Origin: Paramarasmius palmivorus
Lineage: Eukaryota > Basidiomycota > Agaricomycetes > Agaricales > Marasmiaceae
Direction of reading: 5' to 3'
Length of the DNA: 64,000 bases
Assembly (NCBI GenBank): GCA_037176845.1
Contig: JAYKXP010000063.1
Location: 62,001 to 126,000 of the forward strand
A program made the translations under genes and the position numbers. The notes beneath the pieces are model-generated. The model ran no database searches. It had not been told where the DNA came from and saw only the letters and a list, made by a program, of their open reading frames with translations. This document shows, in pieces, positions 25,173 to 45,453 of the stretch (position 1 is its first letter; each line of letters opens with the position of its first letter).

Positions 25173-25179
25173 TATAAAA
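25173..25179 (+). promoter_or_regulatory. TATA box of the oxalate decarboxylase gene
   Basis: TATAAAA lies 52-58 nt upstream of the ATG at 25231, with a pyrimidine-containing leader between them. Its preservation shows that the promoter and first exon of the interrupted gene are still in place. Confidence 0.6.
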
Positions 25180-25230
25180 GGGGAGTCCAGTTCTGTGAGT
25201 GAACTCGTTGGGATTTCTTTCGAATACTCG

Positions 25231-25445
25231 ATGTCTCTTCTCCGAAGCTCCGCGTCTCTTGCTCTTCTTGCTCTCTGCCAACTTGCTATAGGGGCTCCCA
25301 CGTCCCCGAGCTCCTCAGCTGATGTGTCCACAGCGACGGTTGCATATGCGAGCACAGACCCCAACTATCCTCTCTGGGGAATCGACAGCGATGCTTCTGT
25401 ACCAAAACCTGTGCGAGGCTCACTTGGTGCTTCGATCTTAGGCCC
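25231..25445 (+). pseudogene. Oxalate decarboxylase, 5' part (interrupted by KDZ element)
   Basis: First 71 codons plus two bases of a bicupin oxalate decarboxylase whose remainder lies at 42118-44195. ATG 25231 opens a signal peptide (SLLRSSASLALLALCQLAIG), so the enzyme is secreted. The mature start (DPNYPLWGIDSD, VRGSLGASILGP) is typical of basidiomycete oxalate decarboxylases. The reading ends in ATC TTA GGC CC at the duplicated target TAGGCCC. On the far side of the 16.7-kb insertion it continues A GAT AAC GTT CCA, exactly in frame (LGP-DNVPL). The insertion separates promoter and signal peptide from the catalytic domains, so no full enzyme can be made unless the element is excised. Confidence 0.93.
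25439..25445. repeat. Target-site duplication, left copy (TAGGCCC)
   Basis: Repeated as TAGGCCC at 42111-42117, immediately outside the right end of the element. With one mismatch the duplication could be 8 bp (TTAGGCCC against GTAGGCCC), the length reported for Zisupton-type elements. Removing the element plus one copy restores the oxalate decarboxylase frame. Confidence 0.85.
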
Positions 25446-25489
25446 GAGGAATCCATGTAGCTTCAAAAATTTGAAAGCCACAAGCAGTC
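25446..25489 (+). repeat. KDZ element left terminal inverted repeat
   Basis: Aligned with the reverse complement of 42110-42067, the outer nine bases are poorly matched. Then ATGTAGCTTCAAAA is identical, TTGAAA is identical after two mismatches, and the next ~13 bases match at about 9 positions. The first palindrome of the left array (25462-25473) lies within it. Confidence 0.8.
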
Positions 25490-26741
25490 CTAAGTCGTCA
25501 TTATTTTGATCCCATTCAAAGTAACAGCTTGAGGCTCATAGTTTTGACGACTCTCCCCACCGTCGGCTAGAGCACATCCAGCTGGATATAAATTATTGAT
25601 TGATTCTCTGAGCGTCAATATTTTGATAATACCCTAGACGATCCCGAGCACGCCTCTGCGCTGGTGGTCATGCACCAATTTCTGGAACTATGTTGAAACC
25701 ACCCAGATCTTGTCACCTTGCAATGTTGTGTGCTATTTTTGCGGCCACTTTGGACAGCCAGGAATGATAGATAAAGAACGGCCATGAGGTTGTGGATCTA
25801 GGAGGCTCAGTATATCAGGGTAACAGTTTGACGGTATTGGTATGGGAGCGAAGTATTGTTCACCGTGTTGAGAATCAAAATTTCGAACCCTTCACGCTCG
25901 TAATCTCCGTACCACAATATCTTGTTCTTCATCTAGAGCGTCAAAATTTTGAAGTCCTGACGGAGCGCTACCTGATTCCGCATCAAGCTTTGATAATTGC
26001 CCTGAGGATCAAAATTTTGAGCACTGGTCCATTGCGTCATTGCGGTCAAGTTAGCTGTCGACCCTACCAGCCTCAAAATTTTGATAGAACATAAGATGTA
26101 GGGCCTTTGTCGTTGATCTTTACCCCGCAGCGAAGTGGCGAAATTTTTCTTGAGCATCAACAATTTGAGAGACGTGACCCCATACTTAAATCATAACGCC
26201 AATGAAACTGTGTCGGCGAGGCCCACGGCGTAGACCATTTTCCGATTTGCATGAATATCTATGAAGGCTTAGAAAGCCATTGCCGTGGCGAGAAAATTTT
26301 GAACCTTACCTTGAGAATCAAATTTTTGAAGGCCCACAGAGTGAATGGGACAGTGTAATTGACCTAGATTCAAGGCTTGAATCTGACCTTGAATGTCAAA
26401 ACTTTGACGCCCCACAACGTGACCGGCCTAGATTCACATGGATCCAAGCCGAAGAAATACACACGGGAAGGACCAAACTTTCTGCCCAGTGTATATATCC
26501 CTCGAATCCACTGAAAGACGTAGTGAAACATCAACTGATGAACCGTATGAGGTTTATATTATCGTGCGATACACCCGATACGGTCTATCAGTACGCCTAT
26601 ACGTCGAGCGTATATTTTGGTACTCCCCGTGTGATATCGGATCCTTACCTTGAGGGTCAAAATTTTGAAGACCTGCCACGTCCAGTCAGGAATGTATCAA
26701 TAGCCAATTTTTTATCCACCCCTTGAAGATCAAAATTTTGA
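25462..26741 (+). repeat. Left subterminal palindrome array of the KDZ element
   Basis: At least eleven copies of the 12-bp palindrome TCAAAATTTTGA or 1-3 mismatch variants. Exact copies start at 25941, 26009, 26073, 26657 and 26730; variants at 25462, 25615, 25875, 26157, 26318 and 26396. Typical spacing is 64-84 bp. Many copies have the left context CCTTGAGG and the right context AAGAC, giving a directional motif (CCTTGAG-NN-palindrome-AG). These look like transposase-binding subterminal repeats; the binding role is inference. Between copies I see no gene. Confidence 0.8.
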
Positions 26742-26841
26742 AGCTGGATCGTTGAATATGACTACAGAAATTTCGAGTGCTACCAAATATAGCTCACAGG
26801 AGTCTGAGTTACTGAATACACAAAATAAACAATCTCAGCAT

Positions 26842-29800
26842 TTAGTATAGCTCCAATAAACCATCTTCAACATCAAGCTCTAACTCGACTGTAACTGTCT
26901 TGAGACGCTGTAACATCTCTTCCGGATCCAGGTAGTTGTCATCGAGACTCTTGATCACGTCTGCCACACGCATTCTGAGAGGAGCCCAGGAAACCTGCCA
27001 AGAAGCGCCCCGGCGTCGTTCTATGTCGCTTTGTTCCGAGGCGTAGGCCTTGAGACCATCTGCGAGCCAAGGGCTGACTTCGCTTCACCGCGTGGCTTGA
27101 GAATCCCACCACCCGGCCTTCCACTGGCAAAATTCAATAGACCGTCTCATTTCTTCGTCTACGAGTTCCAGTTCCTCTCGAGAACGTTGTGCTCTGGCTC
27201 GGGCCTTGCACCATTGAACCTGTAGCCCTGGATCACATTAACATAATCTTCCGATCTGGAAAACAAGATGCTCACCTATTTGGATGTCCTTTTGGCGGTC
27301 TGTGCTCATACGGTCGCCAGCCACATACCAGATCCAAGACGCTGTGGAGCTCTTGCTGGAAAGGACGTTTGTATCTTCCACCGTAGGTACGTTAGTTTCG
27401 GCTCCGAATAATGCCTCTTCGATCTCCTTCTCTGAAATTCCCGCCAATTTCTGAGCCTGCCGGAAGGTTTCTTGCTCCTCCGCGAGCAAAGTTCGCTCAC
27501 CCATGGCTCGAATGTCCTCTGGCCTCAACTCTCGAAGTACCTTCTCCCATTCTCCAGGCCCTCTAAGCGCGTATAGGGAAGCACGATGTCGTTTGTAAGA
27601 AATCTCACTGGATTTGACTCTAGACTCGATCTGGTCTCGGAAAGCTCGGGTTTTGGTGTATGCACCTTGGGATGCTGGTTGTCTGGTGCTATGGGCATAT
27701 GCTACGGTCCGAGAGCAAAGATGATCCGTCAAGTCATCAATTGCCTCGTGTGCATACGCGTGGCGAAGTTTGTCTTCGAGACCGATGACGTCTTTGGAGA
27801 ATATAGCACCTCGAGCATCTGGCGGAAGCGTACTCGGCAGCTGAAGGATGACGTCTTCAGATTGGATATCGCCGTTGATGTTGGGTATATGTTCAGCGAT
27901 TCCGGCTATGTGTTCGACCTGATACTTATGGAATCGTTGAATCCGATTAAGGAGTGCTGTTCGCCTATTAAGGATATTGGTTGCTTGGAAGTCTGTCTGT
28001 TTAGACAGGGATGTGAGCCGACGTATACTTTGCCTGACAAATGATTAGTTACCGAAAAAGATTCGGAGAACGAAAAACATACTGGGCCTCCTCGATCTCT
28101 ATTCCTTCGATAACCATGGTGGCAGCATTTGCCAGTACTACTACAGCCTCATTCTGACCTTTCTCACGCTGCATCCTCTCATTCTCTTCTGCCATCTCCT
28201 TCTTTACCTTGGAAACCGAAACAGCTTGGCCATTCATTTATATCAGTTAGCAGTAAGTAACAAGTAGCATCCTAACGTACACATTGCGGGCCTATCGTAT
28301 GGGCATTCCTTGCTCAGTCCTTGCTCCCAGGATTCTACCTGCTTTTCCCACAGACGAACATGTTCCCCAAATTGGATCCTCAGGACGTCGTTGATGGTGG
28401 TAAAGGCTCGTGCGTTGATGATAGACTCAGATATTGCTTTCACCAACCTTTTGAGAAGCAATGTACCTAAATTAGCCTGTAAGACATACCATTACCAATA
28501 TTCATGGAAATTTCTACGCTCACCTGTTCCAATTACCTTGTCGTAATTGTGTCCATTGGCCTGATCCGCCATTGTGTCCAGACGACCCCCGTGTGACATC
28601 ATTGACAGGGAAGCTGCGGCGTTGTTGAATGTAGACCATTTCCGCTCGGGACCTTCACCGTCAGTCTTTCCTGTCCCCACTGCAAAGTTGAACGAGAAAG
28701 GTGCATGACAGGCTTGAACATGCGCAGGAAGATGGAATTTGGGAACCTTGAAATGGACAGAGGTGCTGCTGGGCAGATGAAGCTCCGAGGGCATGGTGCG
28801 CATTCTTGTGAAGAAGTTCTTGTACTATTGACAAGCAATATCATAGGAGATATATAGAATGAGGCATGCTAGTCTCATAACGCTCATCAGGAATATAGCG
28901 TCCATGTTGCAATATCTGAAACGGAGGTGACAAATGTTGGACAAATTGATGTGACACATTTTTACGTACCTTTCTCCCTTTTGTAAATCGCCGATCCCAT
29001 TTGGACGGAAAAGCTCATGGCGCGCACATATAACTGCACCGATCCCTGTTGCTCTGAGCCCCTTCGATTTCTTGGTATTGGCGTTCCAGATCGCGTTGAA
29101 CCCAACACAATGTGATATCTAATAATGGAATTCAGATGACACGACAAATGAAAAGTTGAGTAACGTACCTCATCAGCGTGTCTTCTAGCATTGACAAGTG
29201 CCATATACGAGTCATGATCTACTACACAGCCCCATCCTGGCCCCAATGTTTCGTCTAACTTATCTTTTGGTCGTGATCGAGCTTTCTGTTTGAAGTTCGC
29301 GTCCATGGCTAAGATAAGGGTATATAGCCACCTAAAGCACAATAATGAGTACCATATCATCTATCAATTTAAACGCCAACCTTCGATTTGCGGGAGCTTG
29401 ATCCCATCCAAGAGGGAGATTGATGCCGGGTTGGGGACATGCATGGCATAATACGGCAGTGCTACCTTGCTGAGTGCCGCTCAAGCCGGAAGGATCATGA
29501 CCACGGCCGAAGCGCTTTCCCATCTTTACGTGTCTCCACTGCCGTACCATGGTCATGAATTGAGCGAGGCGATCCTGACGCCGTTGAGAAAAATATCATT
29601 GCTGAAGCTCCAAGACTTACCGGTGGTTGAGAGAGACCACTTCTGTCACTAAGCTTCTCCAACGTTCGATAGAAGTCTGTTGGAGGTGTTTGTGCTTGCA
29701 GATTAAGCACATGAAATTGCCGTAGAACTTCAAATGTGGCGGCCGACCGCGGATCCTTGTAAGACGACGGCCACCATCCCACTTCGAGCAGCTGCTGCTT

Positions 29801-30676
29801 ATGGTCTGTTATATCTTAAATAAAGTTTTAAACCTATACCGATGTTACTGGAAGCTTACCTAGCTCTTGGTTACACCCACAAAAGAAAACAACAACCTCG
29901 TGTATCCCAGTCACAGACAAGACAACAAAATCCCCTTGTGACTGCTTCGGGCACCCACACAGTTCCCCCAAACGATGTCCAAGGTGAACATGAACGCCAA
30001 TATCCTTGATCGGAACACGCTGGAAGTAATCGCTCTTCCATTCCTATCATGGGAATCAACAAAGGCCTATCTATAAGAGTGACGCCACCCACCTGAATTC
30101 GATGTAAAGGGTCGAGTTGATGCTGGTTGCATATGCAATCTCTGCACATCATTTGGAGAGAAAAGCAGTCCAGGCAACGAAACCGGCCTGATGCGGAGCC
30201 GCAGCGACAACGTGAGCCGTGCCTTCCCCAACCTTCGGAGATGAGCATTCCATCCAGATATTCATCACGATGTTTTTCTTTCCAAGTCAGTAACGGATGA
30301 TCCTTCGGAAAATCAGTGAGAGGGGATTAAATTATAGGGAGCAACATACGGAATCCTGATATCGTTTTGCCTTTGGCTTTACGGTAACTTTCACTCTTCC
30401 AGGCTCCTCTTCTTCGTCCAAAGGCATTTCCGTAGAAAAATTCTCGCACGGTTGCCAATCCATTTCGACCGACTCAACATGTTGCTCCGGATCCCGGGCC
30501 CGAGGTACAGGCTGAAGTCCTTGCTGAGGTACTTGCTGGTTAATTTCAACATGGAAAGTGGTTGAGCTGATCCGATGAGCACTGCTAGTGATCAGGGTTT
30601 GCCGAGATCCTTTTGGTTGCAAAGGTCCAGTGGTTTCAAACCGCTTCTTGTTACGCTCGAACCGATCTTTGGCCAT
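26842..30676 (-). pseudogene. KDZ transposase with N-terminal CxC2 cysteine cluster, two in-frame stops
   Basis: The multi-exon reading starts at MAKDRFERNKKRF (ATG 30676). The CxC2-type KDZ-associated cysteine cluster follows: CRCGSASGRFRCLDC, MMCRDCICNQHQLDPLHRI, and later ELCGCPKQSQGD and FFCGCNQEL. The KDZ domain is recognisable throughout: PRSAATFEVLRQFHVLNLQA, WRHVKMGKRFGRGHDP, VLCHACPQPGINLPLGW, AVICARHELFRPNGIGDLQK, YISYDIACQ, VPKFHLPAHVQACHAPFSF, GKTDGEGPERKWSTFN. The C-terminal part has LRHAYAHEAIDDL and WCKARARAQRSREELELVDE. Two stops interrupt coding that otherwise matches the family: TAG at 28827-28825, directly after DIACQ, and TGA at 27087-27085, after WWDSQATR. The last stop is at 26842. 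The gene reads toward the left array. The full-length product cannot be made without readthrough. Confidence 0.9.
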
Positions 30677-30876
30677 GGTCGTTCCGCAAAAGGGAGAAAA
30701 TAGGGTTAGGGTATGTTTGTGGATGGTTAGGGTAGGGTTAGGATTCGATTTCGTCACCACATTCTTTCGTCTCGACCCCAACCTTCAAAATATTCAAACC
30801 CGCATCTCGTGATAACCCATGCCACCCTCGATATTTAAGCTCCATCATCGAATTTTTCTTCCCATATCCTTCAACG
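30677..30876. promoter_or_regulatory. Divergent promoter region with telomere-like repeats
   Basis: A 200-bp space between the divergent transposase gene and the small plus-strand gene, so it must serve both. The part next to the transposase contains several TTAGGG-type words (TAGGGTTAGGG near 30702, TTAGGGTAGGGTTAGG near 30726). Their function is unknown. Confidence 0.45.
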
Positions 30877-31656
30877 ATGAACTCCTCTAACGACACCGGC
30901 CTCAAACCTCTTATTGATACCTTGCGTGCTACCATCGAACTTGCCAATGCACAGCTTCGTAAGTCACCAAAGATAAAACGCTTTGCATCGTACTAAGTTA
31001 TTCGACCCAGTTGCCGGTACTAGGATCACAGGCTCAACCCGAGAGGAGCTTGTTGAGCTTCATTCCAGCCTAACAAGTGTCCTCCTTGGTGCGTATCCTA
31101 CTCCTACTTTTAGATTTTTCTCACTAATACAAACATGTATATAGGGAGTTTTGACAACCCTGTCCAGCCTGAACCCGAGCCCGAAAATATTCCTCTAATT
31201 CAACCCGCAGGAGTTTCGCAGGAGGCTCTTGGTACGCATCGTTGTCCCGTTGAATCACTCCGCTGACCAGAGCTCCAGACCGCCTGTGGCATGAAATGAA
31301 CCAAGTAACATGGGAAGAATATCAGGCGATAATCTCCACCACTGGTACGCAGCAGTTGTTCAGCCAATACCCTGACTGACCAGACTATTCACATTAGCCC
31401 ACTCGCCATCTCATCAAACCTTCAGTTCAACCACTGCCAACGTTTCTTTTGATCAAGGCATTCCTGCCGACTTCAATCCGGGTGAGTGACTCCAATCGTG
31501 CTGCCTGGTGATCCTTTCTGATTCCAAGCCATAGAAGCCCTCGAATATGCACAGTGGTCTATCGAGTCGTTGATCCCGGCGGTGAATGACCCAATTCTCC
31601 ACTACGACTACAGCACAGAACTCAGCTTGTTGAGTGAGCAGATTGAATCGGTTTAG
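30877..31656 (+). CDS. KDZ-element accessory protein, unknown function
   Basis: Six short exons with consistent phases: MNSSNDTGLKPLIDTLRATI, LAGTRITGSTREELVELHSS, a Pro/Glu-rich piece (NPVQPEPEPENIPLIQPAGV), PDRLWHEMNQVTWEEYQAII, a Ser/Thr-rich piece, and EALEYAQWSIESLIPAVNDP, ending at TAG 31654-31656. All introns are GT-AG. The product is about 200 aa, acidic, with no membrane segment. I do not recognise a domain. It is divergent from the transposase and shares its promoter region, suggesting co-expression and a role in the element's life cycle. The chain of in-phase junctions makes the gene credible. Confidence 0.6.
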
Positions 31657-31989
31657 TCTAGTCGTATAGATTACCGCTATAGATTACCTACTACCGGCTA
31701 TCAATGCAACACTAGCTAATCGGCTGTCAGCAATTGAATAACTTGATTCAAAGCACATGCACCCCTCAATTCTCTATCTCCGTGTTTTCCGCCACGCCAT
31801 ACATTTTGATCCTCGAAATGAGCGATACTCAATACAGCTAGTATATTAAAAGAAGCAACCATTGATACATTTTGTGGAACCGGCTTTGCTTGATTCACGC
31901 AGAGGCATCGTGCCATCAGGAGTTTGGTGATAACGCCTCAATACATCCGCTTCTTATTTCTCGGCTTTTTGGACAAGGCGCTCAGGTAC
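31657..31989. other. Convergent intergenic segment inside the KDZ element
   Basis: No gene seen between the small plus-strand gene and the minus-strand accessory genes. One palindrome-like word (TTTTGATCCTCGAAA) occurs near 31805. Confidence 0.35.
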
Positions 31990-32610
31990 CTAAATAAACC
32001 CTATCTCGTTCTCCGTGCTATTCGTCATCTCATTCAAGTCCCTTATCCTTCTCAAACTGGCGGCATACCAATCCTCCTCCATGCAACGCCTCAGGGTGCA
32101 GTTGGCTTCAATCACAGAGAAATACCTTGGGAAGTAAACCGGCGCGCGTACAGGCTTGTCCCTTGCTTTGTACGACGGTGGAAGGTTGAGAATTCCAGCG
32201 GCTCGATCATCAACTCGGTAAAGCCAATTAGACTTTGCCGATAGACGTGTGTATAGCTTCTTGAGTAACTTGGCAACACCACGAACGCTGCGGCTATCAA
32301 TGTCCAGAAGATGAACCACTTGCTGGACTAGAAGTCAGTAAGCCTCCGGATGTAAAAGAGTTGGAAGTACCAGGATGACCGTCCTTCTCCATTCAGCACG
32401 CTCTTCTGTGTCCCATGAAGAAAGATACAATGGAGGGGCCCATCGCGCGCACCAAAAAAGAACAATATCTCGAATAAGGTCCCAAAATCGTTCATCGTTT
32501 GGATCGTCGGGTAGATCTCTGGCGCTGATGTATTGTTCGCGTTTGCGTGCAAGGAATCCCAGCTGTTCTTCTGTGAACCATGCAGATTTCAATGTATCAG
32601 ACCTATAAAA
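31990..32610 (-). CDS. KDZ-element accessory protein with FTEEQLGFL motif
   Basis: Two clear coding blocks on the minus strand. The first reads SDTLKSAWFTEEQLGFLARK, then EQYISARDLPDDPNDERFWD and WCARWAPPLYLSSWDTEERA. It is preceded by a TATAG acceptor and, before that intron, by a Pro-rich frame (PPFVPLLATPSM). The second block (about 32319-31990) reads VRGVAKLLKKLYTRLSAKSN and FPRYFSVIEANCTLRRCMEE. Proteins opening with a W-x-x-(D/E)EQ-x-x-FL block are common in basidiomycete repetitive DNA, and the plus-strand gene at 38.2 kb has a related opening (RKTWAQGKKLVILLKHEKTF). Function unknown. The start codon and the exact introns are uncertain, and it could be the 3' end of the gene just upstream. 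Confidence 0.45.
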
Positions 32611-32813
32611 TTGTTTTCAATCCAATCAAATTTTTAGAAGGGTGGCACATACATCGACGGAGTCGCAAGGAGAGGTACAAAGGGTGGTGTATGAACCCCG
32701 AAAGGTCCCTTTAAAAGCAGCGATTCATTTACATACCCTCATTTACCCAGAGTCAAGGGAGAAGAACAGTATAGATTTATATGGAACTAATAGACCAAGT
32801 TCGCCGCCTCAAT

Positions 32814-33583
32814 TCACTGAGGGAGCGGAAACAGACCAGAATACAGGAGCTTATTCAGTGAGAAGGAACCCTCGATTTCACGCTTCACCACATGGCGGCT
32901 GTCGTGGAATTTGTACCATATACCCTTATAGGTAAAGGCAAGGGCGCCTTCTGGTTCTCTCTCTCTCACAACGGTAGAGCCCTGTTCATACTCCTCGATG
33001 GCAATGGTAAGACCCAGGTCCGAGACCTCTTTGGCGTATTCCCCCTTATAGTTCATCTCCATGGCTGCCAGTCGGTGCAGCCACTCTCGGATCTCCTACA
33101 AGGAATGTTAGCTTGAACGGGATATTAGGTACTTTGCAATACGAACCTCTTTCCTTGTGTATACAAGTAGTCTCTGGAGGTTCTTGTCGTCGTTGTAGAA
33201 TCCATATTGCGGCCAGCGTGTAATGAGGCGCTCGTGAACCTCGTTGATGCCTTGCACATACGTTCTATCCCATATGTGAGTGAAGAACCACTTGTATAGC
33301 TCTTTTCCGAGCCATTGAACATGTCGCGTAACTATCGGTCGGAGCAACACAGGAACGAGAGTCTGTTAAAGCCAATAAGAGATGGTAACTGTTTCGAGGC
33401 TTCTAAACACGCACGGGATCTTGTTGGTAAGCCCTGTTAACCAGCACTCGCAAGCTTCGTCTACGTCGGAGAAAGCCCTGCAATCATGATTTGACTAACA
33501 TCTGGCACAAGAAAAAGGCATCGTACTGGTTTGTTTCTTTGTTTTGCTGCATTATCCCGAGCTTTACTTCGAGTGAGGGCCAT
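32814..33583 (-). CDS. KDZ-element accessory exons, unknown function
   Basis: Exon series on the minus strand. An ATG at 33583 (MALTRSKARDNAAKQRNK) is one possible start. An alternative frame in the same place reads FELVTRLIWPSLEVKLGIMQ, then AFSDVDEACECWLTGLTNKI, and looks equally protein-like. Both can splice into PVLLRPIVTRHVQWLGKELY, FTHIWDRTYVQGINEVHERL and, after another intron, EIREWLHRLAAMEMNYKGEY, ending near 32814. The block is clearly coding, but I cannot decide whether it is a separate gene or the middle of one long gene with its neighbours at 33729-34507 and 31990-32610. Confidence 0.4.
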
Positions 33584-33728
33584 ATGAGACGAGTGACTAG
33601 TTCGAACGGTGCAAAGTTCGAACAAAGTAGTACGGGTTAAAGAAGGGATTCCTAAAATGGAAGGTGAACTTGGGAATTCCGTCGCTTTAGTCCATTCTTC
33701 ATATAGGAGGCATGTAATTCTATGGACA

Positions 33729-34507
33729 TCACTTCAAAAACTTCAGAGCTCCTTGGCTAAAGCTATTGGTAAGGGATATGATGCTGCCGTCCATGGCTTG
33801 AAGAGTAAGGTCTGCGATCCACGATAGCAAGACCACCAAATCGCCTTTAAAGTCCTCATACATCGAGAACAGCTCCCCATTCCCTACGTTCTCAAGGACT
33901 CCCTTCATACAGTCGTAGATGGAGGACTGTACCTTCTCCAGTTTGGAATGCAACTGGTCTAGATGAGCTACAGCATCCTCATCCGTAGAAACCGAGATGG
34001 CGAATTGATAGGCGGCCAGTGCTCGTTGGCGATTATCGGAGGCTTTGCCTGCAATGTTCTCTAGCTTTCCGCGAATGTTTGATAGTTGTAGTATCCAGAA
34101 CTCCGGAGACTGTTTGGATAGCCTTAGCTCAAGGGGAGATCGGGTGAGTAAAGGCCTGACACAAGAACTTGGAGACACACCTAGTCCCCTCTCCCTTATG
34201 CGATTTCGTATCCTTCGACTTCCTCTCGACATCTTTGGGTAATACATCGTAGCGTTCACTGGTAATGAGGTCAGGGTTGGCCTGCGTGCTGTAGTTTGAT
34301 GAGAAACGCAGTGAGAATACATATATCAGAGAATCACGCACACCATCTTTCTACGCCCGGCATTGATTTTGTCCTTGTTCCTATGAATATATGAGCACAT
34401 ACTGTGAATGAAACGATAATAGCTCACTTATGGTAGTATTTAGACCATTTCTGTCGGTTTGCGGCTTGCTTCTCGGCGCGAGTTGTGTACAGCCGTTGTC
34501 GAGGCAT
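33729..34507 (-). CDS. KDZ-element accessory protein with basic N-terminal motif
   Basis: The start MPRQRLYTTRAEKQAANRQK continues WSKYYHKNKDKINAGRRKM across a GT-AG intron. This strongly basic, Tyr/Lys-rich opening recurs in hypothetical proteins of agaricomycete repetitive DNA and resembles a nucleic-acid-binding helix. Further exons read NPDLITSERYDVLPKDVERK and then a long helical region (SKQSPEFWILQLSNIRGKLE, LDQLHSKLEKVQSSIYDCMK). A stop follows KFLK at 33729, although splicing into the next exon group is possible. Nuclear location is likely from the charge pattern; the precise role is unknown. Confidence 0.5.
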
Positions 34508-34887
34508 GAGAGCGGAAGGTAAAGTGTAAAGCAAGGGTACTTTTATTGCACTGGCCGCTCGACCTTTTCCTGAGATGTGGGCTTGACGAGATTTTGGTAT
34601 TATTTGTTTCGGACGAAGAGATAGGCATGAGCTGTCATGTTTTGGAGCCGTCTAAGGCCATGTTAGTGGATAGATGATAAGATATGTCTCGCCGAGTGTC
34701 TTCTCCGAAAACCCGACGAGGCGCTAACTCGGCGCTTGTGAAAGCCAACCATCACATGCATCACATTTGGGGTTACTTAGGGTTGGTCTGTGGGTATAAA
34801 GCACTCGAATCGTTTGAATAAAAGGATACTAATCATTCCAATGAAATATTTTATATGACAACTTCTCTAATACAATCTAAATAGAAT

Positions 34888-36547
34888 CTAAGAGCCCGAT
34901 AGTAGACGAGCGCCCTCGAGAGCCATCGACTTACGATGAGCCTTCCACGACTTCAACTGCTTGGGGTGTGCTCTGGAACGAAACTCTCTATCACTCATGC
35001 CTCCGTTGTGAACCCAGCGAAATAAACCGGCGGCGCTGTACTGGACGATGGATGAACGCGACTCATGTTTGGCGATTGGAATATTTGAGTGTTCAATGAG
35101 GGCAGAGGGGAAGTAAACGGTGCATCCAGGGGGCACTTCGATGACAAGCCCTAGGTCCCATAGCACAAGATGCCCACCACGTGTGTAGTCAAAGTCGCCG
35201 ATGGCCATAACTGCACAAAGTCCACAAAAAAGATTGAGCGAGTCGATGTGTCGGAGAGTATGGGCGCGGTCATAGTTGAATGTGGTAGCCGCGAAGCAAC
35301 AACCAGGAAAGTTGGGTCGAAGAGACGGGTTTTGATCGACGAGCTTCTGAATGACCCGGGTGTACAGAGCATGAAGTTCCGGAAACTGTGTTCTCATTAC
35401 ATCTGCAGTATTGTCAGCGCTCTATGTTAGGGTTAGGAATGAGAACCACGCACAGTCATCATAACGAGCCTTCCTTTGCATCGCCGAATGTGCCCTCGCT
35501 GCTTCCAAGACGCTTGCCGTATTCTCCGGATGTGTGAGGTTGCTGGGTTGGGTCTGACCGCCACCAAACGAGATACCCATCGCGAGCGCCGGGAAATGAC
35601 CTCGCCGATGGTCAAGAGAATCCGGAGGAAGATGAATGGATGTGAATGTGTCCCGAAGAACTCCTTGGATCTGCTGTATGACTAGATCCCAGCCAGGTCC
35701 TGCCCATCCCGCAAGATACGCCAGACGTCCACCACTAGCATCACGGATCATACGACTTTGCCTGACAATGGCGATGAGCGTTTCAAACGGCAAAAAGAGT
35801 ATACGCTTACGTTCGATCGGGCCAACGAATAAGACGCATATTTGGAAAGGAGAGCGTCTGAGGAAGGGAATAAACTGTCGTGTTGTATGGAATCTTCGGC
35901 CCAGTCCATTCTCGGGCGGGAGTGACGTACGAGGTCGAGACGGCGGCAGCGTTTGCTTGAGATGCAATGTGTCGTGCAGCACATTGCTTGATGCCTAGCG
36001 AACCGGACTCTTGTTGAGCCTTGAGACGAAGCGAGGCTCTGACCACACGATACTGCTGTCGAACTTTCAAGAGCTTCGTTTGCTTGAAGGATAGTTTGCG
36101 GTCAGGGATCGGTTGCTGTTGCGTTTGTTTCCAAGGACTCTTCAACGGCGGCGGCGTAAGCCTTCTGGCGAGATTACGGATAGTCGTCAAAATGGGGCTC
36201 CTTCCTGTCAAATAAAGTCAGTCTCCAGGCATTGGGAGCGAGTAGTTACGCACCGGTGTTTAATCCCCCTTCCTCGGCAGCCTCTTCACCCGTTTGCTCA
36301 GTCGACGCCGCTTGCTGTTTGGCCGAAACTAGCCCTCGTGTGGTGACACCTTGTAGCTGTATATCCGGCGCTGGGTTTCGGAACATGGCAAACTCCTTCC
36401 CATTCCGAAGTTTGTGAACTAGGTAGGATAATATGAGTATGATCCACTGCCCCAAGGTCGGGGAATGGTTTCGTTGCTACCCCAAGGTCGGGGAACATTC
36501 GGAATAGGCGGGAAAGTGAAGTAGGATGGAAACTCACCAAAATCCAT
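34888..36547 (-). CDS. TET/JBP-family 2-oxoglutarate/Fe(II) dioxygenase (intact)
   Basis: Five exons (36547-36538, 36418-36254, 36204-35811, 35761-35454, 35402-34888) give an exactly in-frame 463-aa protein. TET/JBP enzymes oxidise 5-methylcytosine or thymine in DNA with Fe(II), O2 and 2-oxoglutarate. The catalytic core is in the last two exons: MGISFGGGQTQPSNLTHPEN, then FAATTFNYDRAHTLRHIDSL with the HxD iron pair (HID), GDFDYTRGGHLVLWDLGLVI, PPGCTVYFPSALIEHSNIPI with the distal iron-binding His, and ESRSSIVQYSAAGLFRW with the Arg expected to hold 2-oxoglutarate. The N-terminal ~190 aa are basic (RNLARRLTPPPLKS, KQTKLLKVRQQYR) and may bind DNA. Every ligand residue is present and the frame is clean, unlike the transposase. 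Such genes travel with KDZ transposons in basidiomycetes. Exact substrate unknown. Confidence 0.88.
36460..36496. repeat. Duplicated CCCCAAGGTCGGGG hairpin word in TET/JBP intron 1
   Basis: Two copies of CCCCAAGGTCGGGGAA, about 21 bp apart, lie within the first intron (36537-36419) of the TET/JBP gene. Each can fold as a short CCCC/GGGG stem. Possible regulatory or splicing relevance is speculation. Confidence 0.4.
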
Positions 36548-36947
36548 GGCAGAGGGTGGACGACGTTCGTGTTCAACATAGCTGTGCCTTTATAGGGATG
36601 ATAAGGAGTGCCTTTTGGAGAGAAATATTGGAAAAAGAAAAAGAAAAAGAAAAACCAAATGTCGGTCTGATGGAAGTTCGGAACATATGAACACATGGGT
36701 CAGATGACGCCGCCAAGGCAATACGGGCGGCCCGACATGAGCGCTTAGCAACCTCTTGCGGCGATTCGGGTCACTGACTTCTTTGTTCTTCCTATCAGAT
36801 GTCTTGGCTGGTTTATGGGGTCTTCAGGAATCCGGCCTATGAAGAGATCACATCTGAATCAATTCATACCCTTAGCTGCGAGTTCCGCTGTAAACGCTAG
36901 TAAAGTTGCACCCATTCAAACGGTAGTAGTAGCAGTACACGAACTAC

Positions 36948-37814
36948 CTAGAATTGGGGATCAATCTCATTCCAGAACGCGTCGGAATGGCGAGATGAAC
37001 ATTCCCTGTCTCCAACAGGGCTTTGTGCTCGAGCCATGTACTCAGTGTGAGCCTTGTGCCTCGCATATAGATCATTCCACCACCGATCAAACGTTGCTGT
37101 CAAGACTGACTTCCAATCTTTCTCGCTCATTCCTTCCGGACGTGCGTCAAACTTCGTAGGCCCAAATGCACGGAGTTCATGGTATGTGGGCGGGGATTTC
37201 GGGGGAAAGATCGCAACATCTATCACCTTCGAATGAACAAGAGAATGTTTGAAGACACAGAATACATACCTCGGTCAACCCATTTTTGCAAAGCCTCTTG
37301 AAAATCGGTCACGCCGTCATCGGAGGCGTAGCTTTCGCACTGACTACCGTCTTCAGAGACCTTTTCTGCCAATGCATCACAATCACTTTGGCCTTGGCAC
37401 GGCGATTCTTCGTCGGAAGGAGAGCTCATCTCCGAGTCGCTGGCCTCAGACTCGGACTCTCCGTGAATAGTACCTTGGTCTAGAAGTAGTTCAGAGATAA
37501 AACAGCCGCTCATTTGTATAGATACTTACGTGGAACCAGGAGATACACGACTTCTTTTTCTTCCTTGATGTCCTCATACTCGATTTCTGGAACATCTCCC
37601 TATGAACGTCATGTCAGCTCCCATTAACGCCACAGCACCTGATTGGCCTGGGCCTTACCTTGGACTCTGGTGAAAAAAAGCGCATCGGGGAGAATAAGTC
37701 CTTAGGGGATATAGGCTGTAACGTTGTAAGTATTTGCACCTATGCTGGATTGGGTTCACTTACTTCAGGTGTGGCTCCCCTAGCAAAATATACACGCTTT
37801 GGAGTCAGAAACAT
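36948..37814 (-). CDS. KDZ-element accessory protein with acidic Ser-rich region
   Basis: Five exons (37814-37764, 37715-37659, 37599-37530, 37479-37270, 37219-36948) yield an in-frame 219-aa protein starting MFLTPKRVYFARGATPE. The middle is strongly acidic and Ser-rich (ESESEASDSEMSSPSDEESP), a likely disordered and phosphorylatable stretch. The C-terminal part is folded-looking, with FPPKSPPTYHELRAFGPTKF and SEKDWKSVLTATFDRWWNDL. No domain is recognised. It lies directly upstream of the TET/JBP gene in the same orientation, with 0.4 kb between them, and the frame is undamaged. A cofactor role for either enzyme is conceivable but unsupported. Confidence 0.6.
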
Positions 37815-38057
37815 GTTTGTGTGATTGATGGTGGTGTTTCTGGTGAGAGACCAAAGAGATTCCACTCGATTCGTATAATCCTGACGTGGGAATGCACAGA
37901 AGCCATGCTACATTAGAGCGACGTAACTGGTTGGCGGGTGGCGGGAGTTCTAGACTGATCAAAAGAAACAATTCTTGTGCTTGGACGAGATAATTAATTA
38001 CCGTTAATCGTTTGCGCCACATCGACAATGAGAAATCTGTGAAGTTCGCCGTGAGTA

Positions 38058-38095
38058 TCAAAAATTTGAAGACATCAGCGAGAGCAAAATTTTGA
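38058..38095. repeat. Internal pair of the KDZ palindrome
   Basis: A variant (TCAAAAATTTGA, 38058-38069) and a near copy (GCAAAATTTTGA, 38084-38095), 26 bp apart. They lie 74 bp upstream of the plus-strand gene start at 38169 and about 240 bp upstream of the divergent minus-strand gene. They may act on a bidirectional promoter. Confidence 0.55.
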
Positions 38096-38168
38096 CGCTC
38101 ACCACCAACTTCAATCCTTGTCCTCCTACTGCCTCCTCTCTAGCCCAGCTGCTTCCCTCTTTGTTCCC

Positions 38169-40693
38169 ATGGTCAAACCAAAGTCTTCAACTCGAAAGGG
38201 GCTCGGCAGCGCCATCACCACAGCCAAACAAGCTCTCAAAGGTCACGGAAGCAAGAAAAAAGCGGTACCGCAACCGGCAGGCGACCAAGCCACCTCAGCC
38301 ACCTCAGAGCCAGGAAAGTCGGGTCGGAAAACCTGGGCTCAAGGTAAAAAGCTTGTTATTCTTCTCAAGCATGAGAAGACATTCTACAAGAATCGCCCCT
38401 TGTACTATGATCTCGTTTGTGCTGATTTCCTAGAGGAATGGGGCCACAACCTCAAGTGGAATGAAGAACCAGATGAGACGAAGGACTACACGGATCGACC
38501 ACTTTCCGAGTTCACTGGGGATGCTCTGCTTGAGGAGATCAAGAACTGAAGAATCTTCGAGAAGAATAATCGAGACGTAAGTTTTGGAACTTAGACTTGA
38601 CGCGATGCCCGCTAACCTGACTGTAGAACATCGCAGCTTGGGCTAGAAACCGATTCGACAAGAAACAGACAGACTCAGAGAAGATATCTGAGGTCCTGGC
38701 TTTGATGACGGAGTTCCTCAAGGTCCTTCCCCACAGGTGCGTTGAGTCATCTTGCACCTTGGATGTTTGGATTCACTGACCTCGGCGTCAGGACAACGCT
38801 TATTCGAATGTATCAGAGGATCTACTATCAGTCCAAGCTCAAGCACCTGTTCGATGCGCAATGGACGGTCATTTCCCAGGCTAACCCCAACGCCGAGTGG
38901 ATCAAAGAGATGAACAAGTTCACCTCCTCGATGTTGGCAAGTGAGACCGAGGAAGTATTGGAGGCGTTAAAGGAGGAAATTCAGAAGGAGTATGATGAAC
39001 GTATGACTGAGTATAGAAAGATCGGGCATTGGGATAGCGATGCGGAGAAGTTTAACTAGTAAGTGCCTGATAATCAGTGGCTGTGAACCTATAATGACGT
39101 TTGTTGGGCAGCAATTGGAAGAAGGCTCACCGCGTTATTCCCACATTGACCGATTCCATTGCGGCGTTCTTGGGCTGTGGTGTCTTGTTAACCACGTTTG
39201 GACCCATGGCGGATGGCGAGATCTCTGTACAGAGGTAAGCAGGACAGTAAACGTACTATTATACAGATAATCAACTGACTTTGACCTTTTGAGTGTATGT
39301 GCAGTTGTTCCGGAGGCTCGAACTCGTCAGACATTGGCCCAGTTCGATAGAGCCAAGCTTGCAGAGACGCACGCATTGTGCCATCAGTATGCTCAAGCGT
39401 TATTCTGTGAGTTTTCAGACGTCTGTTATTGGGAAACTGAGACTGACATTCTCACTAGCTGAATCAACGTGTCGATCAAGGATTCCAGAAAGTGGGGCTG
39501 ACCTTGGTGTTGACGAAGAAGATACCGGCGAAGCCGTGGGTGCTGAGCGTTTGATCAGTTTCCCAGAGTCAGCTTCCGCGGCTTATACCGCGGCTCACGA
39601 AGCGCTCTTGGCCAAATTGGCGCTCAGTGAGTCAGACTCATCAAAGTCCGACGCAGCCAATGAACACGTTGCCAATGCTCCCGTCAACGTCACCAACGTT
39701 GCTACCTCTTCTTCTACTGTCAACGCCGCTGTAACCTCTACCCCTTCCTCCACCGCTGCTACCTCTACCCCCACTACCGCTGCTACCTCTACCCCTCCGC
39801 CAACCTCCACCAATCCTTCCATTGAAGATACAGGTGCCAGCAATGCATTTGCCCCGACAGGCCTAACGTTTACCAATTCGACACTTGTTCCTACGCCAGT
39901 GGTACCTTCTCAATCCGGCTCTACAGCAACAACTGGCCCGATTCAGGATCAACCAACTTTCGATCAACCAACTTTCGATCAACCAAATTTCGATCAACCA
40001 ACTTTCGATTTCCAGGCCTTCGAAGAGATGTTCAACAAACTTGATACTTCAGAGTGGGATAGCATGATGAATTTCCAGCTGGGTACCATAGGTGAATCGT
40101 CGGTTTCTAGCTGCAAGCATATGTTGAAACTAAGATCAATCCCAGATCCACCTCAAAATGTATCCAATCTTCAGGATACCCCCGTGCAGGACCTCTATGT
40201 TGTCCCTCGACCTGATGACCCACCTGTTAATCAGGCCAACCTCCGTCCCCTAGTCGATCCTAACCCAGAACATACCGCTTCCGACCATTCAACTCCTCCT
40301 GTTATTGATCACCCCAATTCAGGTACGGATCCCAGTTCCTACGAGGAGAACATTCCCACCACCCCTGATCCTACCAACCCCCCACCTGTCGAAGATCATG
40401 TCACTGCTCTGACCCCGGCCCGGAAGCGGAAGCTCGCTATCGCACGTGAAAAAGCAACGAAAGCGGCGGAGGTTTCTCAAGGTGAAGCGAACAACCAAAC
40501 TGTGCTTACAGAGAAGGCTGCGAAAGCAAATGCGAAGAGGAGGGCTACTCTGGCAAGAAAGAAGGCAGAAGCTGCAGCTGCAGCTGAAGCATTGGGTGAT
40601 GATGACGGGGGTTCAAGGTCGAAGAGGGCTCGTGTACTGCCGGCGGCTCTGGCAGCTGGAGGTTACAAACCGCCAGCAAAAGGAAAGAGGTAG
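38169..40693 (+). pseudogene. KDZ-element protein with low-complexity tail, one in-frame stop
   Basis: The ATG at 38169 opens a basic leader (MVKPKSSTRKGLGSAITTAK). A structured part follows: RKTWAQGKKLVILLKHEKTF, WARNRFDKKQTDSEKISEVL, MYQRIYYQSKLKHLFDAQW, NYNWKKAHRVIPTLTDSI. It is spread over several GT-AG exons with consistent phases. A TGA at 38547-38549 interrupts the first exon between EEIKN and RIFEKNNRD. A Thr/Ala/Ser-rich linker, four QP(T/N)FD repeats and a Lys/Arg/Ala-rich end (ARKRKLAIAREK, RSKRARVLP) complete it; the end looks like a nuclear signal. Its opening is related to the FTEEQ protein at 32 kb. Function unknown, but proteins of this shape are frequent beside KDZ genes. With the stop, only the first 126 codons would be made. 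Confidence 0.65.
39948..40010 (+). repeat. 15-bp tandem repeat coding QP(T/N)FD
   Basis: Four copies of GATCAACCAACTTTC, the third with AAATTTC, within the low-complexity part of the plus-strand gene. In-frame repeat length variation would only change protein length. Confidence 0.75.
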
Positions 40694-41162
40694 ATTAGAG
40701 TTGTAATACTTTCTTTAACGAGGAACGAGTTTTTTTTGCGCAAGTCGTGTAAAAATTTGGGCCAAGGCCTGGGCTCTAGTAATGCATAGTTTTCTCCCAC
40801 CCACGGCCTGTTGACGAAGTGGTAGTGAGTAACTCCGAAGTTGTAGGAATGCATGGTCTGGTGTTCGATTCCCTGGATGTGAAGATTTTTGAACATTTGT
40901 TGACCTTCGTGTGAAAGTCCTGCCAACGGTACAGCTATTGCTCAGACTGCGGCGACAAACTCCATGGCCAATGAGCAAGATTTTTATGCTTGACCGTATC
41001 ACGAAAGGATCGCAGGAATACCGACACTCAAGCGGCCGAGAGTCAACACATCGCTAAAGTCCATAGTGAAGGCTGATTGGTAGGGGAATTTTACGATTCA
41101 ATTCTTTGTTACTCAAGGAGGCGAGAAAAATATTGGTCCGTACCAGATTTGGAACGCGCAGG

Positions 41163-42093
41163 CAAATGGTCTTCAAAGTATTGAGGGTCAAGGCAGCGGT
41201 CAAGACTTTATTAGTGAGTACGAGGTTTCAAATGTGTCTTCAATTTTTTGATGCTCAAGGTAACCATCGATTTATTGATGGCACTCGTTCAGCCCTTGCA
41301 AACAGTAACAACCCTTCAATTTTTTGATGCTCAAGGTAGCCATCGAATTATTGATTGTGTCTAAGGTACCGAACATCCGGTCGGAGGGTCTTCATATAAT
41401 GGCGCTCAGGATACCAGTCAAAGTTTTGACGACAGTTACCTAGCCCTTGCGAACACTAAGGAGCTCGTCAATATTTGGATGCTCAAGGCAAATATCGATT
41501 TAAGGATGGCGTCTCAGGTGCTCAACATCTGGTAGGAAAGCCTTCAATATAATGACGCTCAAGTAAGCGGTCAAGACATTGTCAGTAATTAGCGGACTGC
41601 CGCAAACAGTAAGAGACCTTCAATTTTTTGATGCTCAGGAAAACGATGAAAAAATTGACAGTGTCGCAACCATCGGAGGTGCTTCAAAACAACGACGCTT
41701 AGGACAGTGGTCAAAACTTCGATGGCTCGCGATGAGGCAAAGGGCTCTGATCTCAAACCGGGCGCTGTGGATGCTCTGGTATTCGAGATTCCTAGTGTTC
41801 GCTGCCTATTCATGGACGACATACACTATTTGGTGAGCGCGTGGAATGATTAATGTGGTTCGGTCTACAAAATAGGTTCAGCTGGGTCACGGTAGCGTCC
41901 CCCAGCAAGGGTTTTCAGAGACGACAACATCAAAATATTGACGGTCTAGGATGCTTACAATATTATGACACTGCCGTCTCCAGGCAGGCTGACAGAGCAG
42001 ACAGAGCTATCAAAATATTGAGCTTCACGGCGTTACTTTGAATGGAATCAAAATAATGACGACCTAGACAGCCTGTGCATTTCAATATTTTGA
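41163..42093 (-). repeat. Right subterminal array of the KDZ element (76-bp units)
   Basis: Unit starts at 41239, 41315, 41391, 41467, 41543 and 41619 are exactly 76 bp apart; flanking units at 41172 and 41683 are shorter. Each unit opens with a palindrome-like word (TTCAATTTTTTGA or variant) followed by TGCTCAAGG. Alternate units share their second half (AGCCCTTGCAAACAGTAA in one set, GGTACCGAACATCCGG-like in the other), so the true period is about 152 bp. Nearer the end, isolated copies occur at 41930, 42010, 42048 and 42082. Read on the minus strand the unit gives CCTTGAGCATCAAAAAATTG, the same directional motif as in the left array, in opposite orientation. Confidence 0.8.
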
Positions 42094-42110
42094 AGCTACA
42101 TCCACTGTTG
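42067..42110 (-). repeat. KDZ element right terminal inverted repeat
   Basis: The reverse complement reads CAACAGTGG, then ATGTAGCTTCAAAA, then TATTGAAA. The central part is identical to the left end over 14 bases. It abuts TAGGCCC at 42111. Confidence 0.8.
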
Positions 42111-42117
42111 TAGGCCC
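42111..42117. repeat. Target-site duplication, right copy (TAGGCCC)
   Basis: Matches 25439-25445. The following bases AGATAACGTTCC continue the oxalate decarboxylase coding sequence in the frame left open at 25445. Confidence 0.85.
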
Positions 42118-44195
42118 AGATAACGTTCCATTGGAATTGGAGAATCCTGATATGCTCGCACCTCCAACGACTGATAATGGTCAAGTGTACGTACTTTGAT
42201 TCATTTCCTGCATTTATATCAAGGTCTCTAACACAACTTCCGTTGTCAGTGGAAATGCCAAGTGGCCCTTCAGCTTCAGCACCAACCGTATCCAAACAGG
42301 GGGTTGGGCCCGACAGCAAAATGGTATGCGTTAGAATTTGAATGTGACTGTCAACTGATATCGTATTGAATGTCTAGCGGGAGTGATGCCAATTGCAAAA
42401 AGTAGGATCATGTTGATCGACGACCTCTGATCGCTTGTTTATTAACTTCGTATAGATATGGCTGGAGTTAACATGAGGTTGGAGGCGGGAGCCATTCGTG
42501 AAATGCACTGGCACAAAACATCAGAGGTTTGTTTTGCCTGCTCACATTCTGAAACGTATTTTAACGTGCTCTTACATGAAAGTGGGGATACGTCCTCAAG
42601 GCAAGTTGAATTGAAACAGGACATACATGGTTCTAATCCTGATTGATAATACAATAGGGTACCACACAGGTTTCGGCGGTGGATCAGGAAGGCAGAAATT
42701 TCGTAGCAAATATAGTGCGTAGTATCACGCAGCGAGGGCGCAGAGCGAATATTCTGACGGTACAAATAGAAAGCTGGCGATCTTTGGTTTTTCCCAGCGG
42801 GTATCCCTCACTCCCTACAGGCGACAGCAGACGATCCTGAAGGTGCCGAGTTCCTATTGGTACGTTGCCAAGTGGCGAATCCGGTTTCAGTTATTCAGCT
42901 TCCCAAATCTAGGTGTTCCCTGACGGAGACTTTAGCGAGGATGAAACTTTTCTTGTGGGCTAATCTATTTCCATGCGTCTGAAACCACTCTGACACGTAG
43001 AAAACAGCTCACCGACTGGCTTGCTCATGTACCTGCCGAAGGTTGTAGTTCCATGACGTTGCTACACAATGCCGCTAACTATTTTCTTAGTTATTGAAAA
43101 GAACTTCCAAGTCAATAACCCTGAGGCGTTCTCTCGCATTCCTTCCAAGGAATTGTATATCTTCCCTGGAAGTACGTACTTCGAACGCAAGTGCAGTCAT
43201 TGGCTAATCACCGTGAATTTTCTTTCATTAGCACCGCCCACGACTGCAGAAGCTCCTTCAGATCCCCAAGGGCAGGTACCGGATTCCTATGCGTTTGCAC
43301 TATCGGAAGTTTCTCCTACACCCCTTGCTGGCGGCAGTGTAAAGATTGTTGACTCGACCACATTCAAAATTTCCACTACGATAGCCGCTGCTGAAGTCAC
43401 TGTTGAACCGGGTGCCCTTCGGTGAGCCTTAATGAGCCCTCATCTTAATCAATATTTAACAATTCCCGTAGCGAGCTCCATGTGAGTAGCGCGACATTTG
43501 TGTGATGAAACTGATCCATTAATCTGGATCTCAGTGGCATCCAACAATGGACGAGTGGACTTTCTTCCTGTACGTTTTTACATTGACGGCCATCGACAGC
43601 CATCTTACTTTACTCCAGGGAAGGCGAAGGCAGAGCGACCATTTTCGCATCTCAGGGAAATGCCAGGACGTTTAACTACCAGGTAAGCATGGCACAACGA
43701 TCTCGAATCACACATAGAACTCACGTTTCGTGTATGATAGAGCGGAGATATTGGTGAGTATCGGTCTGAGTGACTCTCGATTACGACTGATGCGGTATAC
43801 ATTTCTTCTCCAGCGTATATTCCGGCTTCCATGGGTGAGCAGCACTCTCAGAGACGAGCTAAACGGTGTTGACTACTATGCCTATAGGTCACTACATTGA
43901 AAACACGGGCAACTCCACATTGAAGTTCCTCGAGATTTTCAATACTGGTAAGCTTGGTTGGTGCTAATAACTTCATTCGCGTGCTCAATGAGTCCTAGAC
44001 CGCTTCCAGGATATCAGCTTGACCCAGGTTCGTATCATGATCAAATCTATATCTTCCTTTGATTCATGACCTCGTAAACAGTGGCTTGCTCTGACACCGC
44101 CAGAGCTATTGAAAGCTCACTTGGGGTTGGACAACGAAACCATTGCTAATCTAAACAAGACCAAAGCAACAGTTGTAGCCCCTGTGAAAGTGTAG
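42118..44195 (+). pseudogene. Oxalate decarboxylase, 3' part (catalytic bicupin)
   Basis: Converts oxalate to formate and CO2 with Mn. It continues the frame from 25231-25445: PDNVPLELENPDMLAPPTTD, NAKWPFSFSTNRIQTGGWAR. Cupin 1 has GAIREMHWHKTSE, and DLWFFPAGIPHS adds the last Mn-binding His. Cupin 2 has GALRELHWHPTMDEWTFFL and DIAYIPASMGHY. Both Mn sites (HxH, E, H) are complete. About 15 short exons join with correct phases, ending KATVVAPVKV at TAG 44193-44195. One intron (42601-42657) appears to use a GC-AG pair. No damage is seen in this part, so the gene was intact when the KDZ element inserted. Alone it lacks promoter and signal peptide. Confidence 0.92.
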
Positions 44196-44426
44196 AAGGA
44201 CTGCCATACATGTTTCATTTTTAGCTAGACAGAACGAATTCCAAGCATTTAATTTATCGTCCCCAAAGGCTTCCGTTCAATGCGTTGACATTGCGTGAAT
44301 CTTCATGACCACCTAAACGGACACTCGAACAACACGACTAGAAAGTCTCGTCAACCATCCATGCGATATCATTAACGCCTGGCTTCTCGCAGTTGCAAGG
44401 GCTGCAACAACAGAGAAGCGGAGGTG

Positions 44427-45007: not shown

Positions 45008-45012
45008 ATTAG
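45008..45012. repeat. Copia target-site duplication, left (ATTAG)
   Basis: ATTAG directly before the 5' LTR, repeated at 50896-50900 directly after the 3' LTR. Five base pairs is the normal length for Ty1/copia. Confidence 0.95.
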
Positions 45013-45277
45013 TGTTGAAACTATCTTTAGATTAGATTATATCCACTCTATCTCCGAGCACCACTCGGAATTCCTTAGTCTTACTGTACGTACCACTTGG
45101 ACTCCTATGCGGGTTACTTCTGTACTTTAGTATATAAGCTAGTTGGTATCTACTGGAATAGACAGTGCTTTACACACTACCAAGTCGCATACACTTCTAT
45201 CTCTCATCAGATATATTCATCAGGTAAGCCTCAGTCAATCCACTGCCACTGCGGTAGGCTAGGCATATGCTTCGACA
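45013..45277 (+). repeat. 5' LTR (265 bp)
   Basis: Begins TGTTGAAAC, ends CTTCGACA, so it has the usual TG...CA ends. It contains a TATA-like AGTATATAAG near 45128 that probably starts the genomic RNA. It appears identical to 50631-50895. Confidence 0.95.
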
Positions 45278-45290: not shown

Positions 45291-45453
45291 GGTCGCCACA
45301 ATGATAAGCGCTGTAATTAGCCGCTGTCAGGCTTGACTGGTTGTACCTGTCCATTATACTGGACATTGGTTTCACGCCTTTTAATTTGCGCCTTTACGGC
45401 TGCATTTATGTTGTCATGACACAATGCTGATTATGTTCATCAGAACTTTTATC

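What the first reader, a model, noticed from the sequence alone, without database searches (positions are those of the whole stretch)
25231..44195. A 16.7-kb KDZ transposon with a TET/JBP gene cuts an oxalate decarboxylase gene and leaves a perfect footprint
Seen directly: ...ATC TTA GGC CC at 25445 and A GAT AAC GTT at 42118 join in frame. TAGGCCC is duplicated at both edges, and the two ends share ATGTAGCTTCAAAA in inverted orientation. Known: KDZ elements and their link to TET/JBP genes in basidiomycetes. Inference: a recent insertion that silences secretion of an oxalate-degrading enzyme. Precise excision would restore it, so individuals or nuclei might differ in oxalate handling.
Basis: partly seen in the sequence, partly recalled or inferred. 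Interest (0 to 1): 0.92.

Follow-up and report, generated by a model that had tools for sequence, protein, structure and literature searches.

The report
Young TET-carrying jumping gene splits oxalate gene
In a mushroom genome a 16.7-kb jumping gene that carries its own DNA-demethylase-like enzyme has recently cut one of several oxalate-degrading enzyme genes in two, and a sister copy of that gene in the same genome shows the uncut site exactly.

Summary
A 16,665-bp KDZ-type DNA transposon (25446-42110) sits in exon 1 of an oxalate decarboxylase (OxDC) gene of Paramarasmius palmivorus, flanked by a perfect 7-bp duplication, TAGGCCC. A paralogue in the same assembly (C45) lacks the insert and carries TAGGCCC once, so the empty site was seen.

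The insertion looks young: the split gene has no stop, frameshift or splice defect and no excess amino-acid change. The family moved recently: two 0.7-kb derivatives are identical (704/704) at unrelated sites.

The phenotypic inference is weak: the C45 paralogue is intact and 97.5% identical over the 364-aa part 3' of the insert, and at least nine further loci resemble OxDC. The deposited gene model hides the break behind a transposon-derived start.

New detail concerns the element. TET appears to be a cassette in a KDZ lineage with conserved extra genes (X, Z, Y): 0 of 17 close KDZ relatives have this TET within 10 kb, and it branches apart from the 7 other resident TETs sampled. TET+ KDZ transposons are already known, so this is a new variant of a known kind. 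No RNA, methylation or population data were available.

The parts
25231..25445 (+). OxDC exon 1, 5' piece (start codon; signal-peptide-like N-terminus, judged by eye), ending with the left TSD
   Evidence: 71 codons aligned to C45 without a gap, w 0.062
25439..25445 (.). left target-site duplication TAGGCCC
   Evidence: single copy in the C45 paralogue
25446..42110 (.). KDZ transposon, 16,665 bp, ends GAGGAATCC.../...CCACTGTTG
   Evidence: same kind of asymmetric ends with 7-bp TSDs in 6 other end pairs of the genome
25455..25547 (+). left terminal inverted repeat (93 b)
   Evidence: 83% to the right end
42010..42101 (-). right terminal inverted repeat (92 b)
25446..26800 (.). left subterminal array of TCAAAATTTTGA-like palindromes (14 with up to 2 mismatches)
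   Evidence: expected 0.18
41100..42110 (.). right subterminal array of the same palindrome (11)
   Evidence: expected 0.13
26842..30676 (-). KDZ transposase, model of 15 exons, 1003 aa, no internal stop
   Evidence: Pfam KDZ and CxC2; model from conservation with the C186 element; pN 0.082, pS 0.73
31982..34507 (-). gene X, unknown function (modelled in three pieces)
   Evidence: one piece (33732-34325) matches C186, C9, C69 and C25 besides itself; pN 0.13-0.20 against pS 0.68-0.70 in the three pieces
34888..36547 (-). TET/JBP dioxygenase, model of 5 exons, 463 aa, HxD...H present
   Evidence: pN 0.056, pS 0.484
36948..37814 (-). gene Z (conserved piece), unknown function
   Evidence: homologue C25:37250-37522, 1.1e-21, in an element without this TET; pN 0.111, pS 0.746
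38169..40693 (+). gene Y, unknown function (398 aa modelled to 39866; extension to 40693 inferred from the 466-aa open frame)
   Evidence: 15 loci in the genome, this one included; pN 0.099, pS 0.686
42111..42117 (.). right target-site duplication TAGGCCC
42118..44195 (+). OxDC remainder: rest of exon 1 and 18 further exons, open, 17 GT-AG introns and one GC-AG
   Evidence: OxdC structure 1j58 3.4e-126; deposited model P0077 matches TIGR03404, 7.4e-162

Best explanation
A cut-and-paste KDZ transposon of a low-copy TET-carrying family inserted recently into exon 1 of one of at least eleven OxDC-like loci of P. palmivorus, making a 7-bp target duplication and separating the N-terminal secretion signal from the catalytic part. 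Shown: the insertion, its exact empty site in a paralogue, recent mobility of the family's ends, open transposase and TET models, and far fewer nonsynonymous than synonymous changes in transposase, TET and Y. Inferred: that the transposase acts on the inverted repeats and palindrome arrays; that TET oxidises methylated bases on the element to blunt silencing; that this OxDC copy no longer makes a secreted enzyme; that its loss is buffered by paralogues.
For: TSD and frame. Empty paralogous site overlapping by exactly 7 bases. 7 of 8 end pairs examined have perfect 7-bp TSDs; the 102-bp C86 pair does not; C56 and C198 showed one end only (pairs read). C100 and C167 derivatives 704/704 identical, one extra base, different TSDs and flanks. 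OxDC against C45: dN 0.011, dS 0.256, w 0.043 over 435 codons; amino-acid differences in the 364-aa part polarised with P0078: 4 window-specific, 4 C45-specific, 1 neither; with P0079: 1, 6, 2. At most about 7-9% of the branch since duplication can have been unconstrained. KDZ and CxC2.
Against: No RNA, protein or methylation data. The gene models are home-made predictions, and one aligned codon of the C186 transposase is a stop. dS is saturated for transposase and Y. The deposited gene model VNI00_012945 starts inside the element and keeps an OxDC open frame. CpG observed/expected gives no support for methylation-driven decay or escape: element 0.88, copia 1.00, host flanks 0.95 and 0.90.
Confidence: 0.88

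Rival explanations
1. The insertion does not silence the gene: a promoter and short exons inside the right end of the transposon drive a chimeric OxDC without signal peptide (the deposited model VNI00_012945).
For: The deposited 402-aa model has an N-terminus read from the transposon. The 3' exons are all open with usable splice sites.
Against: The 41659-41850 frame has no match in the sister element C186 at E 1e-3. The model also skips the WGYVLK exon behind a GC donor that C45 shares. It looks like gene-prediction repair.
Confidence: 0.1
2. The element is an old, fixed insertion and the 3' exons persist by chance or under other selection.
For: No near-identical full-length second copy was found with either end or with transposase and TET, so age cannot be read from copies.
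Against: Perfect TSD; no stop, indel or splice change in the CDS against C45; no excess of window-specific amino-acid changes with either outgroup; bound of 7-9% of the branch.
Confidence: 0.06
3. The whole element is spliced out as a giant intron, so the enzyme is made with a few extra residues.
For: A GT inside the left repeat and the AG of the right TSD would keep the frame (read by eye).
Against: 16.6 kb is far beyond the introns of tens of bases in the models here; the donor is poor; the AG comes from the target site, so this is chance.
Confidence: 0.02

Closest known systems
TET+ Kyakuja (Kyakuja-1_LB and others; Kojima 2025, PMC12730594, parts 1-5 of 7 and figure legends read)
   Same: KDZ transposase with TET/JBP, Agaricomycetes, 7-bp TSD; one end here reads CA...
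   Different: The paper reports CA..TG termini without TIRs; here the other end starts GAGGA and the ends hold a 93-b inverted repeat. TET residues at the two CcTet positions differ. Genes like X, Y and Z in Kyakuja were not mentioned in the parts read.
Zisupton / Dileera
   Same: KDZ transposase; Zisupton has TIRs
   Different: 8-bp TSDs according to PMC12730594; here 7 bp
Cryptococcus KDZ1-KDZ3 (PMC12810828, passages seen)
   Same: Active KDZ elements of about 9-11 kb with 139-241 bp TIRs caught inserting into a gene (FRR1)
   Different: CxC1, not CxC2; 8-bp or 4-8-bp TSDs; no TET mentioned in the passages seen
CcTet of Coprinopsis cinerea (PMC11040006, passages seen)
   Same: TET-family dioxygenase with HxD and distal H
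   Different: Gly331 and Asp337 are Asn and Cys at the ungapped positions here

Membership tests
KDZ DNA transposon superfamily | KDZ transposase domain with CxC cluster | tested here: met
   PF18758 7.8e-42, PF18803 6.9e-30; N-terminal KDZ piece only 0.037 in another frame
KDZ DNA transposon superfamily | TIR and target-site duplication | tested here: met
   93 b at 83%; 7-bp TSD in 7 of 8 end pairs
Kyakuja | 7-bp TSD (PMC12730594) | tested here: met
Kyakuja | CA..TG termini, no TIRs (PMC12730594) | tested here: not met
   GAGGA at one end, CAACAG at the other, inverted repeats present
Kyakuja | transposase grouping with Kyakuja in the KDZ tree | not testable with these tools
   no named reference Kyakuja or Zisupton sequences at hand; the session allows no look-ups in supplements
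Zisupton/Dileera | 8-bp TSD | tested here: not met
   7 bp in 7 of 8 pairs, none in the eighth
TET/JBP dioxygenase | HxD and distal H of the iron site | tested here: met
   H344, D346, H397 invariant in 22 rows
TET/JBP dioxygenase | Pfam Tet_JBP | tested here: inconclusive
   8 of 22 aligned members match (best 3.6e-7) and 10 of 22 match 2OG-FeII_Oxy_3; the window protein itself matches no family. NgTET only at E 0.61.
AG-type TET (CcTet-like) | Gly/Ser and Asp at the CcTet 331 and 337 positions | tested here: not met
   Asn in 42 of 43 rows (1 gap) and Cys in 41 of 43 (2 gaps), counted without gaps from the H of HxD. A 22-row profile found no PDB chain at E up to 10, but it missed NgTET too, so that is weak
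Oxalate decarboxylase (bicupin) | TIGR03404 and homology to OxdC | tested here: met
   deposited model P0077 7.4e-162; 3' piece to 1j58 3.4e-126

The most novel reading that the evidence does not exclude
Probability: 0.4. Interest if true: 0.6.

Novelty: new variant of a known kind. Interest (0 to 1): 0.46.

Why it matters
It gives a base-exact and apparently young case of a TET-carrying KDZ transposon entering a gene, with the uncut paralogue in the same genome. Related elements with and without TET in one genome make an open question (what a transposon gains from a TET gene) testable by comparing their methylation, expression and mobility. It also shows how automated annotation can hide a gene break by building a start exon from a transposon.

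Tried and rejected
CpG depletion as a trace of methylation or of TET protection: no signal in element, copia or flanks. Allele instead of paralogue at C45: rejected, because collinear homology is confined to window 23402-25445 and 42108-44260; outside it only three short stray matches (229, 97 and 43 b) appear over C45:104-184 kb. Pfam on single long ORFs of the element gave nothing for the eight sent; six-frame reading gave CxC2 and KDZ on the minus strand and nothing for Y. PDB profile search with the TET alignment: no hit at E up to 10. Structure prediction: switched off. Paper searches: no paper holds oxalate decarboxylase, transposon insertion and basidiomycete together; for the species name 6 papers, 5 listed, none on its transposons by title; one search returned general papers in its 20 rows; Iyer 2014 not held. 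A script bug made one search fail; repeated. In one search the C186-C9 pair ran past the exons and was discarded; redone. A frame slip made the 'TET dom exon' line meaningless; it was not used. A first comparison of C100 with C167 without alignment (484/705) was replaced by an aligned one. In the KDZ table one row (C139:1088, taken as a fragment of the same copy) was dropped. Two open chains of 94 and 131 aa proposed by the gene finder lie antisense to KDZ and TET and were not taken as genes.

Full report
OBSERVATION. The window is G000:C63:62001-126000 of a 68.3-Mb assembly in 393 contigs. The host is Paramarasmius palmivorus: the annotated protein VNI00_012945 of this gene sits on a contig of 326,740 b, the length of C63; the species is in Agaricales, Marasmiaceae. 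TAGGCCC stands at 25439-25445 and 42111-42117 and the element is 25446-42110. Exon 1 joins in frame to the rest of an OxDC: 19 stretches from 42119 to 44195, 17 introns GT-AG and one GC-AG, no stop. The protein is a bicupin oxalate decarboxylase.

EMPTY SITE. The left flank matches C45:143747-144720 (83%) and the right flank C45:144714-146842 (89%); the two matches overlap by the seven TSD bases. The junction reads ...TTTTAGGCCCAGATAACG.... C45 is a dispersed paralogue, not an allele: collinear homology is limited to about 4.3 kb, with three short stray matches elsewhere in the 80 kb compared. The left-flank search showed no other copy at comparable identity (besides itself and C45 only two 113-b matches at 72-75%), so no second haplotype seems to be represented.

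AGE AND CONSEQUENCE. Against C45 the split gene has 11 nonsynonymous and 67 synonymous differences in 435 codons, w 0.043. Of 9 amino-acid differences in the 364-aa part, 4 are specific to the window copy, 4 to C45 and 1 to neither with P0078 as outgroup; 1, 6 and 2 with P0079. If the copy had been free of constraint since the duplication, about 128 nonsynonymous changes would be expected on its branch; taking 4 or 6 observed changes bounds the free time to 7-9% of the branch (this assumes a neutral rate equal to dS and half of dS on each branch). Ten other loci share DNA similarity with the 3' part (C45, C76, C44 twice, C13, C7 four times, C14; a lower bound); only C45 was read for intactness. 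The deposited model starts at a methionine inside the transposon and skips the GC-AG exon; that start frame has no match in the sister element at E 1e-3.

THE ELEMENT. The ends carry nine terminal bases that differ from each other (GAGGAATCC, CAACAGTGG) and then an inverted repeat of 93 bases at 83%. Similar asymmetric ends occur at C186 (17.7 kb), C9 (23.1 kb) and in short derivatives at C100, C167, C23 and C31 (517-707 b). Of 8 end pairs examined 7 have a perfect 7-bp TSD; C86 (102 b) does not. C56 showed a left end only and C198 a right end only. C100 and C167 are identical at 704 of 704 aligned bases but sit in unrelated flanks with different TSDs, which means recent movement. Near each end 12-base palindromes like TCAAAATTTTGA recur (up to 2 mismatches): 14 in the left 1,355 b and 11 in the right 1,011 b, against 3 in the 14.3-kb interior; expected 0.18, 0.13 and 1.04. 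The ends of C186 and C9 and three derivatives hold 7-13 per kb, the window's ends 10-11. These are candidate transposase sites (inferred).

TET AS CASSETTE. With the window TET as query the genome shows 113 matches, 103 of them without a stop in the matched stretch (some are pieces of one gene); with a transposase exon 76. I divided 75 of the 76 transposase hits into the family (3), close relatives (17, E below 1e-30) and distant ones (55). TET within 10 kb: 3 of 3, 0 of 17, 23 of 55. Within 15 kb: 3, 1 and 26 (Fisher 0.0016 for close against distant). Within 20 kb: 3, 2 and 28. The two close cases (C131, C64) have a distant KDZ about 4 kb from a TET on the same contig. Y within 15 kb: 3 of 3, 8 of 17, 0 of 55. 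Limits: one exon stands for each element, contigs end, and other TET types would be missed. C25, a close relative, has transposase, X, Z and Y in the same order, but no match to the TET query set (the window TET and the proteins) at E 0.01 in C25:34501-40000; C163 gave two weak matches (0.001, 0.009) at the edge of the fetched stretch, where they overlap its transposase exons. In a tree of 52 TETs the family groups with MPER_08327 (100/95) inside a branch of 12 rows (98/94); the seven other resident TETs included (of 110 non-family matches) lie on the other side. Five of those seven are long-branched or under half filled, so their exact places are unsure. So the cassette looks like an old, separate TET lineage. 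Gain in this family or loss in its relatives cannot be decided here.

RELATIVES. Gene Y found four proteins in the large protein search: two of P. palmivorus, one of M. perniciosa, one of M. roreri (that search needs shared short words). With MPER_08327 for TET this suggests that the family, or one like it, also lives in Moniliophthora.

ACTIVE SITE. HxD and the distal H are kept. At the two substrate positions of CcTet (Gly331, Asp337; PMC11040006 passages) the window protein and its aligned relatives have Asn and Cys, which does not fit the AG type of PMC12730594. The count assumes no gap, and no structure could be predicted.

VERDICT. As a kind it is known: TET+ KDZ elements (PMC12730594) and active KDZ insertions into genes (PMC12810828 passages). 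What is new is detail: end structure, palindrome arrays, conserved X/Z/Y genes, and a TET lineage of its own used as a cassette.

Noticed in passing
45008-50900: Very young copia LTR retrotransposon 0.8 kb downstream of the OxDC gene: a 267-nt direct repeat at 100% holds the LTRs, 5-bp TSD ATTAG, pol frame split by one TGA inside the RT domain.
   Followed up: partly
41720-42118: Deposited gene model VNI00_012945 builds an N-terminus from transposon sequence and skips a GC-AG exon (start placed by eye).
   Followed up: partly
C13:870888-880389 (G000): A copy of gene Y lies near the end of a contig about 7-8 kb from another OxDC-like locus (contig length inferred).
   Followed up: no
55992-57623: NPHP3_N/NACHT ATPase (NLR-like) open frame on the minus strand.
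   Followed up: no
L011 and L012: The short derivatives contain telomere-like CCCTAA repeats (likeness recalled) in their middle.
   Followed up: no
34450-36900: TET segment of the C63 and C186 elements more alike than the rest, introns included: possible exchange between elements.
   Followed up: partly
own genome: 113 TET/JBP-like matches in 68 Mb, 103 of them without a stop in the matched stretch.
   Followed up: partly
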